In this document: in pieces, positions 7,923-24,800 of the stretch
Layout of the letters: every line of letters starts with the position of its first letter
How positions within the stretch are numbered: position 1 is the stretch's first letter
Origin: Deltaproteobacteria bacterium
Lineage (GTDB): Bacteria; Bdellovibrionota; JACOXK01
Assembly: GCA_016186995.1 (NCBI GenBank)
Contig: JACPKQ010000019.1
Location: 1 to 28,681, forward strand
Direction of reading: 5' to 3'
Length of the DNA stretch: 28,681 nt
Program-made: the position numbers and the translations under genes
The notes under the pieces: generated by a model
What the model saw: only the letters and a program-made list of their open reading frames with translations
Told to the model about the DNA's origin: nothing
Database searches by the model: none

Positions 7923-8975
7923 ATGAAATTATTTAGCAAAAAGCAAAAAGATGTGACTAAGCAAGATTTAATTGATGCTCTCCGCTTTGTTCAAAATCCT
8001 ACAACTGAAAAAGATATTTTTGAGTCGGGTATCGTCAATACCACTGCCGTTTGTGATAATATTGCAAAAATTGTTGTATCTTTAGACCCTATTACTATTA
8101 AGTTTAAAAATAAATTTAAAGTTGAAATTGAGCACCAATTAAGAAAACTTCCTCTTAAAGAGTTTAAGGTTGAGTTTTTAGATCCTGTTCCACCCAAACC
8201 AAAAGCGCCAGAAGCTTCTGCGAAAATTAAAAATATTATTGCTGTTGCAAGTGGTAAGGGTGGGGTTGGAAAATCTACTGTAGCTACCAATTTAAGTTTA
8301 GCTCTTTCTAAAAAAGGTTTTACAGTGGGCCTGCTAGATGCTGATATTTATGGCCCCAGCATTCCTCTTATGATGCAAAAAACAGGTGTCCAACCCGAAG
8401 CAACTCAAGAGGGTGAAATTTTTCCTATCGAAAATTACGGAATTAAGATGATGTCTGTTGGATTTATTTCTCAACCTGGAGAAGCTGTTGTATGGCGGGG
8501 CCCTATGATCCATAAACTTCTTTCAGAATTTTTTTCTAAAGTTCTCTGGGGTGAACTTGATTATTTAGTTGTAGATCTCCCTCCAGGAACTGGTGATGCA
8601 CAGCTTTCTCTAAGTCAACTTATTCCTTTAACGGGTGCTGTCATTGTAACAACTCCGCAAGATGTAGCTTTGGTCGACGTTGACAAAAGTGTTGCTATGT
8701 TTAAAAAAGTGAACGTGCCTATATTAGGGGTTATTGAAAACATGAGTACTTTTGTGTGCCCTCAATGTGGTCATGAAGAAGAAATTTTTAGTCATGGTGG
8801 TGGAGAAAAAGCGGCATTCCAATGGGGAAATATTTTTCTAGGGAGTCTTCCACTTAAAACATCAATTCGTAAAAGCGGGGATGCTGGAAATCCGTTTGTT
8901 CTAGAAGAAACAAGTGAAGAATCAAAAAGTCTTTTTAAAATTACAGAAAATCTAACCAAAAGCTTAGTGAAGTAA
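7923..8975 (+). CDS. mrp: Mrp/NBP35-type P-loop ATPase, Fe-S cluster carrier
   Basis: The product has 350 residues from the ATG at 7923. An upstream in-frame extension to 7851 is possible, but it adds an unrelated hydrophobic stretch, and AGGAAG lies just before the chosen ATG. The N-terminal region of about 90 residues is MIP18/DUF59-like. The deviant Walker A is SGKGGVGKST, with the DADIYGPS switch and DLPPGTGD following. The CPQCGH motif (C-x-x-C) binds the transferable 4Fe-4S cluster at the dimer interface. The role in the family is Fe-S cluster loading onto target proteins. This fits the neighbourhood of Fe-S proteins (Rieske, CCG oxidoreductase). The 3' end overlaps the 3' end of selD by 12 bases. 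Confidence 0.9.
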   Translation: MKLFSKKQKDVTKQDLIDALRFVQNPTTEKDIFESGIVNTTAVCDNIAKIVVSLDPITIKFKNKFKVEIEHQLRKLPLKEFKVEFLDPVPPKPKAPEASAKIKNIIAVASGKGGVGKSTVATNLSLALSKKGFTVGLLDADIYGPSIPLMMQKTGVQPEATQEGEIFPIENYGIKMMSVGFISQPGEAVVWRGPMIHKLLSEFFSKVLWGELDYLVVDLPPGTGDAQLSLSQLIPLTGAVIVTTPQDVALVDVDKSVAMFKKVNVPILGVIENMSTFVCPQCGHEEEIFSHGGGEKAAFQWGNIFLGSLPLKTSIRKSGDAGNPFVLEETSEESKSLFKITENLTKSLVK

Positions 8976-10022
8976 TATTTTTGCGTTTTTTCTTGCCACC
9001 ACTTTTCCAATAATAGAAGCGCTTTTATAACCGGCTTGATGAAGTTTAGGTAAAATCTTTTGAGCTTCTTCTTCAGTTGTCGAAATCAAAAAACCACCTG
9101 AGGTTTGAGGATCAAAAAGAATATCTTTTTTCCATGTCATCTCGGGCTTGACCCGAGATCTATCAATTTTATCATGTGTTGCAAATTCGTTTGTAATTGT
9201 ACCCCCAATACGGAGCCCCTCTTTCATAAATTGCAAACTTTTTTCATATACAGGTATTTTATTAAGTTCAATGTGAAGAGCAAAGGGATTATCTCCTACC
9301 ATTTCAAAACCATGCCCTGCTAAACCAAAACCCGTTACATCAGTAACGGCATGAACTGTAAAATTTTTTAAAACTTCATAAGCATAGCGATTAAGCTGTG
9401 CCATATTTTCTAAATAAGGCTCAAAATCTTTTTCACTTAATTTATCTTTTTTAAATGCTGATACACCTACACCTGTGCCGATGGGTTTTGTGAGAATAAG
9501 AACATCATTTTTGTGAGGTGTATTATTTTTCCAAATTTTTTCTGGATGTACCTCTCCTACAAGAGAGATCCCATATTTTATTTCTGTATCTTTAATGCTG
9601 TGACCTCCTGCCATAAAAGCCCCTGCTTCGTGAATTTTTGAAAGCCCACCTTCTAAAATTTGTGAAAATATGTGCTTGTCTACCACAGTGATTGGAAAAC
9701 AACAGATGTTAAGTGCAATCCGAGGCTCACCACCCATTGCATAAACATCGCTTAAGGCATTGGCTGCTGCAATTTGACCAAATCGGTAAGGATCATCACA
9801 CACAGGTGTAATAATATCTAAAGTGGCAATCAATGCTTTATCTTTTGATGTTTGATACACAGCTGCATCGTCAGAAGATTTGTGTCCTACTAGAAGACGG
9901 GCGTCTTCATTGACATGTAGGTTTTTAATAATGTCTTTTAGATCCGCCGGACCTAACTTAGCACCTCACCCAGAGCTTTGGGAAAAATGTGTCAGACGAA
10001 TTTTTTTTCTTTGATCTGTCAT
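8964..10022 (-). CDS. selD: Selenide, water dikinase (selenophosphate synthetase), itself a selenoprotein with in-frame UGA
   Basis: It makes selenophosphate from selenide and ATP for Sec-tRNA. From the ATG at 10020-10022 it reads MTDQRKKIRLTHFSQSSG, then UGA, then GAKLGPADL. That is the standard SelD N-terminus (E. coli ...GAGCGCKISP), with the catalytic Cys position occupied by UGA at 9966-9968 (residue 19). The second Cys of the pair is Ala21. The same frame continues to AVYQTSKDK and the rest of the enzyme: LSDVYAMGGEPRIALNI, MAGGHSIKD, VTDVTGFGLAGHG and DPQTSGG. Total length is 352 residues, as expected for the family. A call starting at the GTG at 9860 would remove the active site. A SECIS-like hairpin follows the UGA. 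A palindromic repeat is inserted in frame near the C-terminus, encoding DRSRVKPEMT. An ATG at 10073 is an alternative start. Confidence 0.9.
9136..9164 (-). repeat. Short palindromic repeat inserted in frame in selD
   Basis: GTCATCTCGGGCTTGACC...GAGATC forms a perfect TCTCGGG/CCCGAGA stem. On the coding strand it is read as DRSRVKPEMT, just before the conserved DPQTSGG block. The same family member lies between lepB and pyrB at 24774-24800. Confidence 0.8.
9938..9956 (-). promoter_or_regulatory. Bacterial SECIS-like hairpin in selD
   Basis: On the coding strand, TTAGGTCC pairs with GGATCTAA (8 base pairs, one G-U) around a GGC loop. The loop starts 17 bases after the UGA, within the usual distance for bacterial SECIS elements, and has G in the apical loop as SelB recognition requires. 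It encodes residues around LGPADL, so it is both coding and structural. Confidence 0.6.
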
Positions 10023-10096: not shown

Positions 10097-10750
10097 ATGT
10101 TTGGATATCAAATGGAACTATTTGGTTTTAAATGGAATGTGTTTCATTGGGCTCTTATTTTGGGAATCGGTGGTTATTTTGTAGGAACACTTTCATGCCG
10201 AAGTATTCTTAATAAATTTTTTAAAAATATTTCTGAAGTTGTTGTTTTAATATGTGAAGCTTTGAAAGGTTTTATTTTTACTTATTTTATTTATTTAAAA
10301 CTACCACTCAAAGAACAACCCATGCGATTTCAGTCAAAAGGTTTGTGGGAGATGGTTGGAGAGGCTATTTCTTCTCTTGTACAAGGTATTCAAAATGTTC
10401 AATATTCAGCCCTTCTTATTATTGTGTTTACTGGTCTTTTCCTTTTAGGAAGTTCATTGAACCCATTTAAAAAGTTTAAAGGGGAGAATGGCATTGGTAT
10501 CACTTATGGTGTTTTTATGGCCCTTGCTCCTTTAGCTACCTTATGTGCAGTGCTTTTAAATTTAATTTTATTTTTTATAAAAAAAACAAGGAAAGCTTCT
10601 TACTTTTTAAGTTTACTTCTTCTCCCACTATTTATTTATATTTTTTATGATGAAAAAGATTTGGGTGTGTTCATTTTCTATCTTTCAATAGGATTTCTGT
10701 TTATTGTTTTTTTAAAACATGTAAGGAAGATCAAAAGAAGTTTTGTTTAA
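10097..10750 (+). CDS. PlsY-like membrane protein, degenerate at the acyltransferase motifs
   Basis: The product has 217 residues and is very hydrophobic. Its order of segments follows the glycerol-3-phosphate acyltransferase PlsY. The start is like the GSIPFGYLL segment (GYFVGTLSCRSILN). CEALKGFIF corresponds to the family's LDVLKG. NPFKKFKGENGIGITYGV corresponds to PVFLKFKGGKGVATALGV. A similar hydrophobic C-terminus ends in a basic tail. However, the GSGNIGATN phosphate-binding motif is absent, and the GKG motif reads GENG. About 50 extra residues sit in the middle. This suggests a neofunctionalised or decaying paralogue rather than an active acyltransferase. The reading frame itself is intact. 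It is divergent from selD, with 74 bases between the starts. Confidence 0.5.
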   Translation: MFGYQMELFGFKWNVFHWALILGIGGYFVGTLSCRSILNKFFKNISEVVVLICEALKGFIFTYFIYLKLPLKEQPMRFQSKGLWEMVGEAISSLVQGIQNVQYSALLIIVFTGLFLLGSSLNPFKKFKGENGIGITYGVFMALAPLATLCAVLLNLILFFIKKTRKASYFLSLLLLPLFIYIFYDEKDLGVFIFYLSIGFLFIVFLKHVRKIKRSFV

Positions 10751-12441: not shown

Positions 12442-13266
12442 TTATTTTCTAAATCGTTTAAAGATAGATTTAAGATATTCCTTTTTTAAACCTCGTAGTG
12501 AATGGAAAAGAAAAAAGAGAGTTATTCCAAAAACTAAAAGGCTTATGAATTGTGAAGTAGAAACCCACCCAAAAACAAAACCTCTGATTTCATCCCCTCT
12601 AAAAAACTCATTTGTAAATCGGAAAATAGAATAAAGTATGAAATAGACAAGAACCATCTGCCCATCAAATTTTTTGCGGCTACTTAAATAAAAATAAAGC
12701 AAAAGAAAAACAAAAAAAAGCGCTAAAGCTTCATAGAGTTGTGTTGGATGAAGAGGTGTGTGGAGGGGGCGAGCAAAGCTTTCTTCAAGATGAAATGAAA
12801 TGCCCCACGGTAAAGTCGTGGGTTTACCAAAACAACAGCCCGCAAGAACACAACCCAATCTTCCAAACATATGTACAAAAGCAACACCAGGGGCTGCCAC
12901 ATCAAGCATTTTCCAAAGGGGAATATTTTTCTTTTTGCAGTAAAAGATAATGGTAAGAGCCCCGCCTATGAGACCACCATAAAAAACAAGCCCCCCTTCC
13001 CATAGAGCAAAAATTCTTAAAGGTTCTTGGATATATTCGTGAAGGTTTGTAATAATGAAAAGAATGCGTGCACCTATTAAACCCCACAGTAGTGACCAAA
13101 AAGCAATATCAATAAAGGTGTTTGAATGAATACCTTCTTTTTTTGCTAAGCGAGTGATCAAAGGAAGCATGAGAAGAAACCCAAGAGCAATCATGATGCC
13201 ATAAGAGCGTACCTCAATGGGTATGTTTAAAAAGGGTAATACAATCTTAAAAAGAATAGGCTTCAT
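12442..13266 (-). CDS. lgt: Prolipoprotein diacylglyceryl transferase
   Basis: The product has 274 residues and is multi-spanning. It moves diacylglycerol from phosphatidylglycerol to the lipobox Cys, the first step of lipoprotein maturation. Family features visible are the N-terminal PIEVRSYGIMIALGF, WEGGLVFYGGLIGG (HGGL region), FGRLGCVLAGCCFG (the Arg-Gly signature region), and HPTQLYEA, which carries the conserved Gln-Leu-Tyr. Its start overlaps the stop of lspA by 4 bases, so maturation steps one and two are translationally coupled. Confidence 0.93.
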   Translation of the reverse strand: MKPILFKIVLPFLNIPIEVRSYGIMIALGFLLMLPLITRLAKKEGIHSNTFIDIAFWSLLWGLIGARILFIITNLHEYIQEPLRIFALWEGGLVFYGGLIGGALTIIFYCKKKNIPLWKMLDVAAPGVAFVHMFGRLGCVLAGCCFGKPTTLPWGISFHLEESFARPLHTPLHPTQLYEALALFFVFLLLYFYLSSRKKFDGQMVLVYFILYSIFRFTNEFFRGDEIRGFVFGWVSTSQFISLLVFGITLFFLFHSLRGLKKEYLKSIFKRFRK

Positions 13267-13772
13267 ACTCCCCTTTTATGTTTGTGTTCAAAAAAGAAAG
13301 AATAGATAATAAGTAGCGTGACCCCAATGCAAATAGAAGAGTCTGCAACATTAAAAGCGGGCCAGTGTTGTTTGTAAAAAGGAACCCAGGTTAGATCAAC
13401 ATCAATAAAGTCTCTTACATAATTAAAACGTAAACGATCTATCAAATTACCAATGGCTCCAGAAAAAATAAGAATAAGGCTCAGCTTGTAAAGTTTTTGG
13501 TTGGTTTCCGCATTGTGATAAAGGTAAAGAATAAAAGCCACGGCTAAAAGAGGAACGATAACAAAAAAAGTATTAAGAAAGCCCTCTCCCATATTCGAAA
13601 AAAGTCCAAAAGCACCACCTCTGTTGTGAATGTAAGTAATGTATAAAAACTTTGAAATAATAGTGAGGCTTTCAAAAAGGTGAAATTTAAGTTGAATCCA
13701 CTCTTTTGTGATCTGATCAAGTGCAATAATGGGAAGTGATCCTAAAACAAGATAAACATATTTTTTCTTCAT
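13263..13772 (-). CDS. lspA: Lipoprotein signal peptidase (signal peptidase II), catalytically complete copy
   Basis: The product has 169 residues with four membrane helices. It shows the expected blocks: ALDQITKEW, IHNRGGAFGLFS (conserved Asn), GAIGNLIDRLRF, VRDFID with catalytic Asp121, and FNVAD with catalytic Asp144. Both aspartates of the aspartyl-peptidase dyad are present, so this copy should cleave prolipoproteins after Lgt. It overlaps the upstream paralogue and the downstream lgt by 4 bases each (ATGA). Confidence 0.93.
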   Translation of the reverse strand: MKKKYVYLVLGSLPIIALDQITKEWIQLKFHLFESLTIISKFLYITYIHNRGGAFGLFSNMGEGFLNTFFVIVPLLAVAFILYLYHNAETNQKLYKLSLILIFSGAIGNLIDRLRFNYVRDFIDVDLTWVPFYKQHWPAFNVADSSICIGVTLLIIYSFFFEHKHKRGV

Positions 13773-14257
13773 GTTTTTTCCTCTCGAATATGTGAAAAGC
13801 TAATACAAAATATAAGAATAAGTCCCCCTACAATTAAAAAAATATCAGCTAAATTAAGTGGATGGCGGCGTGGTAGCCAATGAAACTCTAAAAAACCTAT
13901 AACAGAGTTAAAACGTAAACGATCTAAAAGATTTCCCAATGCCCCACCGGCAATAAGGGCAAGCCCACAGTAAAAAAGCTGGGATAGGTTTTTTAAAAAG
14001 ATAAAGGCACAAAGAATTCCAACAATAGAAATGAAAGGCACAAGAAGAAAAAAAAGCGTTCTTATGTGTGGATCTAAGTTTTGAAAAATAGCAAAAACCC
14101 CAGCTGTATTTCTTTGAAGTGTTATAGATAAAAAACCTTCAATAAAAGAAGCGGTTGTTCCTAATTTTAGTTCAGAATTGACCCAGAGTTTGGTAACCTG
14201 ATCCAAAGAGACAACAAATCCTGAGAGGGTGAGTAAGATGAGATATTTGATTTTCAT
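13769..14257 (-). CDS. LspA paralogue lacking one catalytic aspartate
   Basis: The product has 162 residues and the same four-helix layout as its neighbour. It has SLDQVTKLWV, LQRNTAGVFAIF, GALGNLLDRLRFNSV and NLAD (Asp138). The position of the first catalytic Asp reads Gly121 (VIGFLEFHW instead of V-x-D-F). A GAT to GGT change would explain this. The Asp-to-Asp segment is also six residues shorter than in the next gene. It is the first gene of the lspA-lspA-lgt overlap chain, divergent from ileS. It may be a non-catalytic partner, a decoy for LspA inhibitors, or an early stage of decay. The frame is intact and well conserved outside this site. Confidence 0.85.
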   Translation of the reverse strand: MKIKYLILLTLSGFVVSLDQVTKLWVNSELKLGTTASFIEGFLSITLQRNTAGVFAIFQNLDPHIRTLFFLLVPFISIVGILCAFIFLKNLSQLFYCGLALIAGGALGNLLDRLRFNSVIGFLEFHWLPRRHPLNLADIFLIVGGLILIFCISFSHIREEKT

Positions 14258-17522: not shown

Positions 17523-20500
17523 ACTCTTCTTTTTGGGCGGCGCCGATTGCATGAAGGGCACCTAAGCCCCCACTTAAAGTTGTAAAATAAGGAATTTGTT
17601 TTTCTAAAGCAGTGCGTCTGATGTCAAAAGAATCTCTTAAGGCTTGTTCTCCAATGGTTGTGTTAATGACAAGATGAATGCGTCCACTTTTAAGTGCATC
17701 AACAACATGAGGACGCCCTTCTAAAACTTTATTAATGGACTCAATGTGATTCATCTTTTTTTCTTTTAAAAACTGCGCTGTTCCTCGCGTTGCAATAATG
17801 TGAAATCCACATTTTTGAAGTTCAGCTGCAATTTCAAAAGCTTTAGCTTTGTCAGAATCTTTCACACTGAGAAAAACATTTCCTTTTTTAGGAAGTGGTG
17901 AGTTTACGGCCTCGGCAGCTTTAGCAAGGGCTAGTGGAAAGGTGTATTCAGTTGCCATGACTTCACCTGTTGATTTCATTTCAGGGCCTAACACAGCATC
18001 TTCGTGAGGATATTTAATAAATGGAAAGACAGACCTTTTTACTGAAAAAGTTTTGGTTTTAAGATCCCCGCTGTTGTGCTTTGCACTATGGGCGGGGATG
18101 ACATCAGAAAGTTTTTTTCCAACCATCAGTTTTGAGGCGATTTTAACAAGAGGAATTTTTCGTGCCTTTGCAATAAAGGGAATTGTTCTTGAAGCTCGTG
18201 GATTTACTTCTAAAACAAAAATATCTTTTTTGGTAAGTGCAAATTGAACGTTCATAAGACCTATGATGTTGAGTTCTAAAGCCAAGGCTTGGGCTTGGTT
18301 TTTAAGTTCTTCAATGGTTTGAGGTGAAAGACTAAAAGGTGGAAGACTACAAGTGCTGTCCCCAGAATGAACGCCAGCTTCTTCCAAATGTTCTAAAACA
18401 CCCGCGACATAAACATCTTTTCCATCTGAGAGAACATCCACATCAACTTCTGTGGCATCTTCGATATAACGATCAATAAGAAGTGGCTCATCTTCTGAAG
18501 CCTGTACTGCATTTTTGATGTATTTTTCTAAATTTCGATTGTCATAAATAATCTCCATAGCGCGCCCACCCAAAACAAAAGAAGGTCTTATGACCAGTGG
18601 AAATCCAAGTTTGTGTGCTGCAAGAAGGGCTTCTTTTTCATTGTGAGCAAGTGCATGAGGAGGTTGTTTAAGTCCCAGTTTATTAATAAGTTTACTAAAA
18701 AACTCTCTATTTTCTGAGGCAATAATTGTTTTAACGGAAGTGCCCAAAATTTTAAATCCGGCTTTTTCTATTTCGTAGGCTAATTTCAAAGGTGTTTGTC
18801 CACCCAGTTGGACAATGACACCCTCTGGTTTTTCTTTTTTAAGAATAGGAAGTACGTCTTCAAAAGTAAGAGGCTCAAAATAAAGTTTATCTGATGTGTC
18901 ATAATCAGTGCTCACCGTTTCTGGGTTACAATTGATCATAATGGTTTCAAAACCTTCCTCTTTTAAAGAAAGTGCTGCATGAACACAGCAGTAATCAAAT
19001 TCAATACCTTGACCAATTCTGTTGGGCCCACTTCCTATGATGACCACTTTCTTTTTATTTGAGATACGAGATTCATCTTCTTCGTCATAAGTTGAATAAA
19101 GATAGGGCGTAAAAGATTCAAACTCAGCTGCACACGTATCAATGGTTTTATAAACGGGCTCAATATTTTCTTTTTCTCTTAAGAGTTGGATTTCTATTTC
19201 TGATAAAGTGGTGAGTGTCGAAAGCCACTTGTCTGAAAATCCCCATTCTTTTGCCTTTTTAAGAAGGTGAGGATCTAGATTCCCGCCTTCGCGGGAATGA
19301 CATTGGATAACCCCTTCGAGTTCAATCATTTCTTTTATGTGGTTTAAAAACCAAGGGTCTATTTTTGTAAGGGTGTGGATAGTTTGGGTTGCAAAACCTT
19401 TTCTAAAAGCCTCGGCTATTATCCACAGTCTTTTGTGTGTAACTGTGGATAACTCTCTTTTGATTTCACTTTCTGAGAGGTGGGCAAAATTTCTTGATTC
19501 TTTAAGATTATCAAAACCATGAACTCCCATTTCTAAAGATCGAATAGCTTTTCCTAAAGATTCTTTAAAAGTTCGGCCAATGGCCATAACTTCCCCGACT
19601 GATTTCATCTGTGTTGTAAGAACTCTGGGCGTCATAGGGAATTTTTCAAAATTAAAACGAGGAATTTTTGTAACAACATAATCAAGAGTAGGTTCAAAAC
19701 AAGCTGGAGTTTTTTGTGTAATGTCATTTGCAATTTCGGAAAGCTGGTAACCCACTGCAAGTTTAGCTGCAATTTTGGCTATAGGAAAACCTGTTGCTTT
19801 TGAAGCTAGAGCAGAGCTTCGCGAAACCCTGGGGTTCATTTCGATTACAACCATTTTTCCTGTTTCAGGATTGACTGCAAATTGAATATTAGATCCGCCT
19901 GTATCGACTCCTATTTCACGAATGATTTTTTTAGAAGCCTCTCTTAAAACTTGATATTCTTTGTCTGTAAGGGTCTGAATAGGGGCAACAGTAATACTAT
20001 CGCCTGTATGCACGCCCATTGGGTCTAGGTTTTCAATCGAACATACGATAATAACATTATCTGCATTGTCACGCATGACTTCAAGCTCAAATTCTTTCCA
20101 ACCCTGAACAGATTCTTCCAATAAAATTTCATGAACCGGGCTTTGAAAAAAACCCCATTCTAAATATTTTTCAAATTCTTCTTGGTTGTAAGCAATGTTT
20201 CCGCCCATTCCACCCAATGTATAAGAAGGGCGCATTACAAGTGGAAAGCCGAGTTCTTCAAGAACTTTTTTGGCTTTTTCTTTGTCTTTCACGACAGAAC
20301 TTTTGGGCACTTCAAGTCCAATTTTTTCCATCGCTTTTTTGAAAAGTTCTCTATCTTCTGCTTTTTCAATAGCGTGAAGCTTGGCCCCGATAAGTTCAAC
20401 ATTATGTTTATCTAAAAAGCCTTCTCTGGCTAAATCTCTTGATAAATTGAGTGCCGTTTGTCCACCTAAGGTGGGTAAAAGAGCTTGTGGCTTTTCTTTT

Positions 20501-21371: not shown

Positions 21372-22567
21372 TGGCGTCCTTTCATCATGTTTATAAACTC
21401 ATCGAAAAGATAAAGTGAGTCAAGAGGGCCTGGGGAAGACTCTGGATGATACTGCACAGAGAGGATTTTTTTATCTTTTATATAAAGCCCTTCAACACTT
21501 CCATCGTTTAGGTTAATATGGGAGAAAAAGTTGTTATTTCCATAAAACTTTTTGTCATCGCGAAGGAGTGGCAACGACTGTGGCGATCTCATCACCTTCG
21601 GTGATGGGATTGCTTCACTACGCTCGCAATGACGGGGCTCTAGGCTGCCTTCAACTGCAAATCCGTGATTTTGAGCAGTTATTTCAACCTTTTGAGATTT
21701 TAAGAAACTTACAGGATGATTGGCTCCACGATGGCCAAATTTCATTTTGTAAGTTTTAGCTCCGAGTGCAAGGCATAAAAGCTGGTGCCCCAAGCAAATA
21801 CCAAAAATAGGTTTTTTTCCTACAAGATGCCTAATATTTTCTATGGCATAAGTAACCGAGGCTGGGTCTCCAGGGCCATTTGAGAGAAAAACTCCATCTG
21901 GGTTAAGATCTAAAACTTCTTTATAAGAAGTAGAGGCTGGAATAACTAAAATGCGGCATCCCCTTTCACTTAAATATTTAAGGATTGATTTTTTAATTCC
22001 AAAATCATAGGCGACTACGAGGTATGAAGGTGTATGTGGGGTGACATGATAAGATTTTTCCGTTGTAACTTCCTTAGCTAAATCTCTCAAGTTCATGGTT
22101 GGAGACTCAAGAATTTTTTTTAAACTTTTTTCCTTATCGAATTTTTCAGTGGTGATCAAAGCACGCATAGCACCTTTGTTTCTGATTTGCTTTGTAATGC
22201 TTCGTGTATCGACATCTGCAATAGCTACGATTTTATGTTCTTTCAAAAATTGTGGAAGTGATTTTTGATTTTTCCAAGAACTAGGTGTGTGGCACATGTT
22301 TTTTACAATAAACCCCTTAGCCCATATTTTATGAGATTCATTATCATCTTCATTTGTTCCATAATTGCCAATATGAGGATAGGTCATTGTAATGATTTGT
22401 TCATGATAGGAAGGATCCGTCAAAATTTCTTGGTAACCGATCATAGAGGTATTAAAAACAATTTCTCCAATAGTAGTGCCTGGAAAACCACAGGAAGTTC
22501 CCTCATAAACGTTACCGTTTTCAAGGAGTAAGGTTGCTTTACTGATCGGAGTAGACAAGTTGCCCAT
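21368..22567 (-). CDS. carA: Carbamoyl-phosphate synthase small subunit (glutamine amidotransferase)
   Basis: The product has 399 residues, longer than usual. The N-terminal CPSase domain has FPGTTIGEIVFNTSM and the GYQEILTDPSY region. The class I amidotransferase domain shows GPGDPAS, the nucleophile in GICLGHQLL, and the His-Glu of QYHPESSPGP. So it should hydrolyse glutamine and pass ammonia to CarB. The extra length comes largely from an 80-nt palindromic repeat translated as RHCERSEAIPSPKVMRSPQS plus neighbours. It sits in a loop between QNHGFAVEG and NLNDGSVEGL. The ATG at 22567 lies inside the end of pyrC (29-base overlap); a TTG at 22558 is an alternative start. Confidence 0.95.
   Translation of the reverse strand: MGNLSTPISKATLLLENGNVYEGTSCGFPGTTIGEIVFNTSMIGYQEILTDPSYHEQIITMTYPHIGNYGTNEDDNESHKIWAKGFIVKNMCHTPSSWKNQKSLPQFLKEHKIVAIADVDTRSITKQIRNKGAMRALITTEKFDKEKSLKKILESPTMNLRDLAKEVTTEKSYHVTPHTPSYLVVAYDFGIKKSILKYLSERGCRILVIPASTSYKEVLDLNPDGVFLSNGPGDPASVTYAIENIRHLVGKKPIFGICLGHQLLCLALGAKTYKMKFGHRGANHPVSFLKSQKVEITAQNHGFAVEGSLEPRHCERSEAIPSPKVMRSPQSLPLLRDDKKFYGNNNFFSHINLNDGSVEGLYIKDKKILSVQYHPESSPGPLDSLYLFDEFINMMKGRQ
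21554..21633 (-). repeat. 80-nt palindromic repeat inserted in frame in carA
   Basis: The ends are GTCATTGCGAG and CGCGATGAC on the coding strand, with inner hairpin CATCACC-gaa-GGTGATG. It has the same length and layout as the intergenic copy at 43-122. It is read through in frame as about 27 residues without a stop. Confidence 0.9.
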
Positions 22568-24773: not shown

Positions 24774-24800
24774 GTCATCCCGGGTTTGACCCGGGATCTA
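24774..24800 (-). repeat. Short palindromic repeat between lepB and pyrB
   Basis: Perfect 9-bp stem ATCCCGGGT...ACCCGGGAT (24777-24797) followed by GACAG on the minus strand. It abuts the lepB TAG stop (24798-24800) and contains an in-frame ATG for pyrB. It could form an mRNA hairpin at the gene boundary. There is no T-run after it, so it is not an obvious terminator. Confidence 0.85.

What the first reader, a model, noticed from the sequence alone, without database searches (positions are those of the whole stretch)
9938..10022. SelD is a selenoprotein: in-frame UGA at the catalytic position, with SECIS-like hairpin
Seen: the frame upstream of the GTG at 9860 stays open except for one TGA (9966-9968). 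It reads a canonical SelD N-terminus, with the TGA exactly where other SelD proteins have the catalytic Cys (or Sec). The second Cys of the pair is Ala. An 8-bp hairpin with a G-containing loop starts right after it. Known: Sec-containing SelD exists in several bacteria. Inferred: the organism has SelA, SelB and tRNA-Sec elsewhere, and automatic annotation will truncate this gene and miss the active site.
Basis: partly seen in the sequence, partly recalled or inferred. Interest (0 to 1): 0.72.

Follow-up and report, generated by a model that had tools for sequence, protein, structure and literature searches.

The report
Selenocysteine-containing SelD selenophosphate synthetase gene
The apparent stop codon in this bacterium's selD gene almost certainly encodes the rare amino acid selenocysteine, so the enzyme that activates selenium is itself a selenium protein, a well-known arrangement found here in a poorly described lineage.

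Summary
Confirmed and ordinary in kind. On the minus strand, ATG 10022 to stop 8964 encodes a 352-aa SelD (TIGR00476, E 1.6e-105). It is interrupted only by TGA 9968-9966, which aligns with the catalytic Cys/Sec. In 109 SelD loci that codon is TGA in 64 and TGT/TGC in 45, never anything else. The same genome (1.68 Mb, 93% complete) has selA, selB and a UCA-anticodon tRNA-Sec. Relatives with TGA-SelD have the Sec machinery; the one lacking a SelA hit is only 78% complete. An 8-bp, GGC-loop hairpin lies 9 nt after the UGA (17 nt to the loop). It meets published bacterial SECIS constraints, is unlikely under synonymous codon choice (p about 0.002-0.007), and recurs with compensatory changes in the sister genus and in Binatota-type SelD genes. 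One inference is too strong: at least one RefSeq record annotates such a selD straight through the TGA. New here: a second predicted selenoprotein (Prx-like, UxxC, G000:C10:56049-56603) with its own SECIS hairpin, also TGA in four relatives; no Sec-FdhA and no SelU found; and dispersed palindromic repeats read in frame in several genes, probably including selD.

The parts
8964..10022 (-). selD, selenide, water dikinase (selenophosphate synthetase), 352 aa when the UGA is read as Sec
   Evidence: TIGR00476 1.6e-105; PF00586 + PF02769; solved Aquifex SelD 2yye, E 1.8e-63
9966..9968 (-). in-frame TGA, predicted selenocysteine 19, at the catalytic Cys/Sec position
   Evidence: 109 homologues: TGA 64, TGT/TGC 45, nothing else
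9938..9956 (-). predicted bacterial SECIS hairpin, 8-bp stem with GGC loop, loop 17 nt after the UGA
   Evidence: fold, synonymous-codon test, compensatory changes in L099, L020, L049, L147
9858..9860 (-). GTG start that a naive ORF caller would choose (298-aa product without Sec19 and Lys22)
9136..9158 (-). copy of a dispersed palindromic repeat read in frame inside selD (SRVKPEMT)

Best explanation
This is a Sec-containing SelD. The ribosome reads UGA 19 as selenocysteine because SelB, bound to the hairpin whose loop lies 17 nt downstream, delivers Sec-tRNA(UCA). The finished enzyme uses Sec19, in the flexible N-terminal loop, to handle selenide and, with ATP, makes selenophosphate. SelA uses the selenophosphate to turn Ser-tRNA-Sec into Sec-tRNA-Sec, so the enzyme needs its own product to be made. 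Shown by sequence: the gene, the UGA, the hairpin and its conservation, the complete selA/selB/selC set in the same genome, and the phylogenetic pattern. Inferred from the known pathway: incorporation of Sec, the catalytic role of Sec19, and the self-dependence. At least one other gene in the genome, a Prx-like protein with a UxxC motif, is predicted to use the same machinery.
For: SelD family membership. TGA alternates only with Cys codons at this column in 109 loci; TGA also in the sister genus G001, in G002 of the same class, and in G047, G119 and G018 of the phylum. selB with C-terminal winged helix, selA, tRNA-Sec at 69.1 bits against a gathering score of 47, with a UCA anticodon. TGA-SelD genomes carry the machinery, while G072 (Cys SelD) has no selA, selB or tRNA-Sec. 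Hairpin: 8/8 pairs, p 0.002; in the TGA class the stem is paired at 0.63 against 0.50 expected from synonymous codons, with 21 of 67 holding 5 or more loop-proximal pairs, against 0 of 46 in the Cys class. No general UGA reassignment: 8 of 23 window genes end in TGA, and 101 TGG codons are used with no other internal TGA. Purifying selection against G001: dN 0.42, dS 1.8.
Against: No protein or peptide evidence. The 71-nt fold is no more stable than shuffles, and the hairpin alone is -7.1 kcal/mol against the published -7.5 threshold (-9.7 for the 42-nt stretch). The same hairpin is not kept in all TGA-SelD genes; G002 (L100), for example, folds differently. The assembly is a 30-contig draft.
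Confidence: 0.96

Rival explanations
1. selD is a pseudogene or carries a sequencing or assembly error (TGC or TGT misread as TGA).
For: The genome is a draft; a single base separates TGA from TGC and TGT.
Against: The sister genus, a separate assembly, has TGA at the same codon and the same hairpin, and so do other phyla. The reading frame is under purifying selection on both sides. The genome has the complete Sec machinery.
Confidence: 0.01
2. The UGA is read by a near-cognate or reassigned tRNA (Trp, Cys or Gly), not as Sec.
For: Stop-codon readthrough without Sec is proposed for insect SPS1 genes (PMC4561486).
Against: UGA is an ordinary stop for 8 of 23 window genes, and TGG encodes Trp. 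tRNA-Sec and SelB are present. The site alternates only with Cys.
Confidence: 0.02
3. Translation really starts at GTG 9860 and the product is a shortened SelD-like protein without the Sec loop.
For: The open frame from GTG 9860 is 298 aa.
Against: The 54 residues upstream are conserved across phyla, contain the catalytic loop, and the hairpin covariation lies inside them.
Confidence: 0.01

Closest known systems
Sec-containing bacterial SelD/SPS (e.g. Aquifex aeolicus SelD, PDB 2yye/2zod, and clostridial and deltaproteobacterial SelD)
   Same: Family, Sec at the same residue, Ala often at the second Cys position, bacterial SECIS in the coding sequence directly downstream
   Different: Only about 41-56% identical to the nearest sequences found; lies in a small-genome lineage probably of Bdellovibrionota; carries a small palindromic repeat in frame
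Cys-containing SelD of the Bdellovibrio group
   Same: Same enzyme, about 41% identity
   Different: TGT/TGC at the site; G072, whose contig length equals that of B. bacteriovorus HD100 (from memory), has no selA, selB or selC, as published for B. bacteriovorus (PMC1273633)

Membership tests
SelD (selenide, water dikinase) | Match to the SelD equivalog model above its curated cut-off | tested here: met
   TIGR00476 352.8 bits against 125; PRK00943 320.7 against 299
SelD (selenide, water dikinase) | Cys or Sec at the N-terminal catalytic site, followed by the conserved Lys | tested here: met
   SSG-U-GAK-LGP; alignment
SelD (selenide, water dikinase) | ATP-dependent selenophosphate synthesis | not testable with these tools
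   needs biochemistry
Bacterial selenoprotein gene | In-frame UGA aligned with Cys of homologues and alternating only with Cys | tested here: met
   64 TGA / 45 Cys of 109
Bacterial selenoprotein gene | bSECIS: 3-9 nt loop, 4-16 bp stem, G in the first two loop positions, 16-37 nt spacing, MFE at most -7.5 (PMC13188914) | tested here: met
   3-nt loop GGC, 8 bp, 17 nt, -9.7 for the 42-nt stretch (hairpin alone -7.1)
Bacterial selenoprotein gene | selA, selB and selC in the genome | tested here: met
Bacterial selenoprotein gene | Sec shown in the protein | not testable with these tools
   needs mass spectrometry or 75Se labelling

The most novel reading that the evidence does not exclude
A small-genome lineage probably of Bdellovibrionota keeps the whole Sec-decoding apparatus for as few as two proteins, SelD itself and a Prx-like redox protein, with no Sec-formate dehydrogenase and no selenouridine synthase. 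That is an unusual way to hold on to the trait: published Sec-decoders without FdhA mostly also make selenouridine.
Probability: 0.3. Interest if true: 0.35.

Novelty: new member of a known kind. Interest (0 to 1): 0.2.

Why it matters
It corrects the start and the active site of a gene that plain ORF callers truncate. It documents Sec decoding in a lineage whose best-known relative lacks it. It gives a clean covariation example of a SECIS hairpin conserved across phyla inside a conserved protein motif. The selenoproteome without FdhA or SelU bears on the published idea that FdhA or SelD maintains the Sec trait.

Tried and rejected
ARAGORN missed the tRNA-Sec, but the Rfam model finds it. Read-through ORFs near selA, selB, selC and in the window showed no convincing further selenoprotein. 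The window alone has no Rfam match or tRNA. General UGA reassignment, pseudogene and sequencing error were considered and rejected. The extra TAG in the G001 copy lies at the contig end, beside a repeated stretch, and looks like an assembly edge.

Full report
What is there. On the minus strand, ATG 10022 opens a frame that runs to a stop ending at 8964, with a single internal stop, TGA at 9968-9966, codon 19. A plain ORF caller starts at GTG 9860 and loses 54 residues. Read through, the 352-aa product is SelD by every test: TIGR00476 at 352.8 bits (cut-off 125), PRK00943 at 320.7 (cut-off 299), PF00586 plus PF02769, and the solved Aquifex SelD at E 1.8e-63 (the source organism is from my own knowledge). 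The TGA sits in SSG-U-GAKLGPADL.

The codon. I aligned 109 SelD loci from many phyla at this column. TGA occurs in 64 and Cys codons in 45; no other codon occurs. The sister genus (G001, 56% identity) and G002 of the same class have TGA. Among more distant genomes of the phylum G047, G119 and G018 have TGA and the large Bdellovibrio-like group has Cys. The second Cys of the E. coli motif is Ala in most homologues (82 of 109), so its absence here is ordinary. In a tree of 112 SelD proteins the TGA/Cys label changes about 8 times (35.7 expected after shuffling). The window's gene pairs with G001 (support 100/99), and 26 Cys genes of the phylum form one clade.

The decoding machinery. The window's own genome (1.68 Mb, 30 contigs, 93% complete) has selB with a C-terminal winged helix, selA, and tRNA-Sec at 69.1 bits against a gathering score of 47, with anticodon UCA and a long variable arm. 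The three lie on three different contigs and not next to selD. Across relatives the pattern fits. G000, G001, G002, G047 and G119 have TGA-SelD and SelA, SelB and tRNA-Sec. G018 has TGA-SelD, SelB and tRNA-Sec but no SelA hit in a 78% complete genome. G072 (contig of 3,782,950 bases, which from memory is the size of Bdellovibrio bacteriovorus HD100) has Cys-SelD and none of the three. G003 has no SelD and none of the three. Published work says B. bacteriovorus has selD without Sec decoding (PMC1273633).

The hairpin. UUAGGUCC-GGC-GGAUCUAA at 9956-9938 begins 9 nt after the UGA, with its loop 17 nt after it. Published constraints for bacterial SECIS are a 3-9 nt loop, a 4-16 bp stem, G in the first two loop positions, 16-37 nt spacing and MFE at most -7.5 (PMC13188914). 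All are met, the energy for the 42-nt stretch (-9.7) though not for the bare hairpin (-7.1). With the protein fixed and codons redrawn from the gene's usage, all 8 pairs recur in 0.2% of draws for this gene, 1% for G001 and 1.4% (7 pairs) for G018. The same register holds in two genes whose records are titled Candidatus Binatota (L020) and Deltaproteobacteria (L049). Pair 4 changes G-C to A-U and pair 1 changes U-A to C-G on both sides. In the TGA class 21 of 67 keep five or more loop-proximal pairs; in the Cys class 0 of 46 do. Not every TGA gene keeps this hairpin; some fold others. A 71-nt fold against shuffles is unremarkable.

Alternatives. UGA is a normal stop here: 8 of 23 window genes end in it, and there is no other internal TGA in 8,984 codons. 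Error or pseudogene is contradicted by independent copies and by dN 0.42, dS 1.8 against G001.

Annotation. In a RefSeq plasmid record, however, the selD of Terrisporobacter mayombei is annotated across its TGA.

What else uses Sec. A PF00578 search of the genome returned one match with an internal TGA, at C10:56070-56378. Read through (184 residues), it is an AhpC-TSA_2/Prx-like protein with FLRHLA-U-LLC-QEH. A hairpin GCACUU-GGUCG-AAGUGC has its loop 20 nt after the UGA. G001, G004, G005 and G006 also have TGA there, G003 and remote homologues have Cys, and the GCAC..GGUGC hairpin predicted there in G004, G005 and G006 carries matching changes. No Sec formate dehydrogenase, no SelU and no SelW-like protein were found. 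Zhang and others report that FdhA-lacking Sec decoders all have Sec-SelD and mostly also the selenouridine trait (PMC1794560). This genome fits the first half and, if the draft is complete enough, not the second.

Verdict. The observation and the interpretation stand. It is a new member of a well-known kind (Sec-SelD is described across bacteria: PMC1794560, PMC4561486). I found no paper describing selenoproteins in Bdellovibrionota in the held library, which is a limited search. The assignment to Bdellovibrionota is itself an inference from a genome size.

Noticed in passing
L157:1480-2034 (+), G000:C10:56049-56603, same genome outside the window: Second predicted selenoprotein: Prx-like (AhpC-TSA_2) with in-frame TGA in a UxxC motif and a SECIS-like hairpin with GG-starting loop. 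TGA is conserved in G001, G004, G005 and G006; Cys in G003.
   Followed up: yes
window 9136-9158, 19267-19311, 21545-21640, 267-326, 24774-24796; also L143 (selA), L142, L144, L005: Dispersed short palindromic repeats (such as CATTCCCGCGAAGGCGGGAATC and TCTCGGGTCAAGCCCGAGATGAC). Some copies are read in frame inside genes: carA, carB, the 869-aa ORF, selD, and apparently selA. They resemble Rickettsia palindromic elements in habit. The selD copy adds about 3 residues relative to homologues.
   Followed up: partly
window 12442-14257 (-): By their sequences, two tandem lspA-like (signal peptidase II) genes, overlapping by 4 bases and followed by an lgt-like gene; not tested against families.
   Followed up: no
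G004 (loci L101, L161, L186, L197): A relative with Cys-SelD but a TGA-containing Prx-like gene, SelB and tRNA-Sec; SelA not found in an 83% complete genome. It suggests that SelD switched to Cys while Sec decoding was kept.
   Followed up: partly
window 10097-10750 (+): Divergently transcribed, weak PlsY-like (G3P acyltransferase) membrane protein of 217 aa next to selD, far below the PlsY equivalog cut-off.
   Followed up: no
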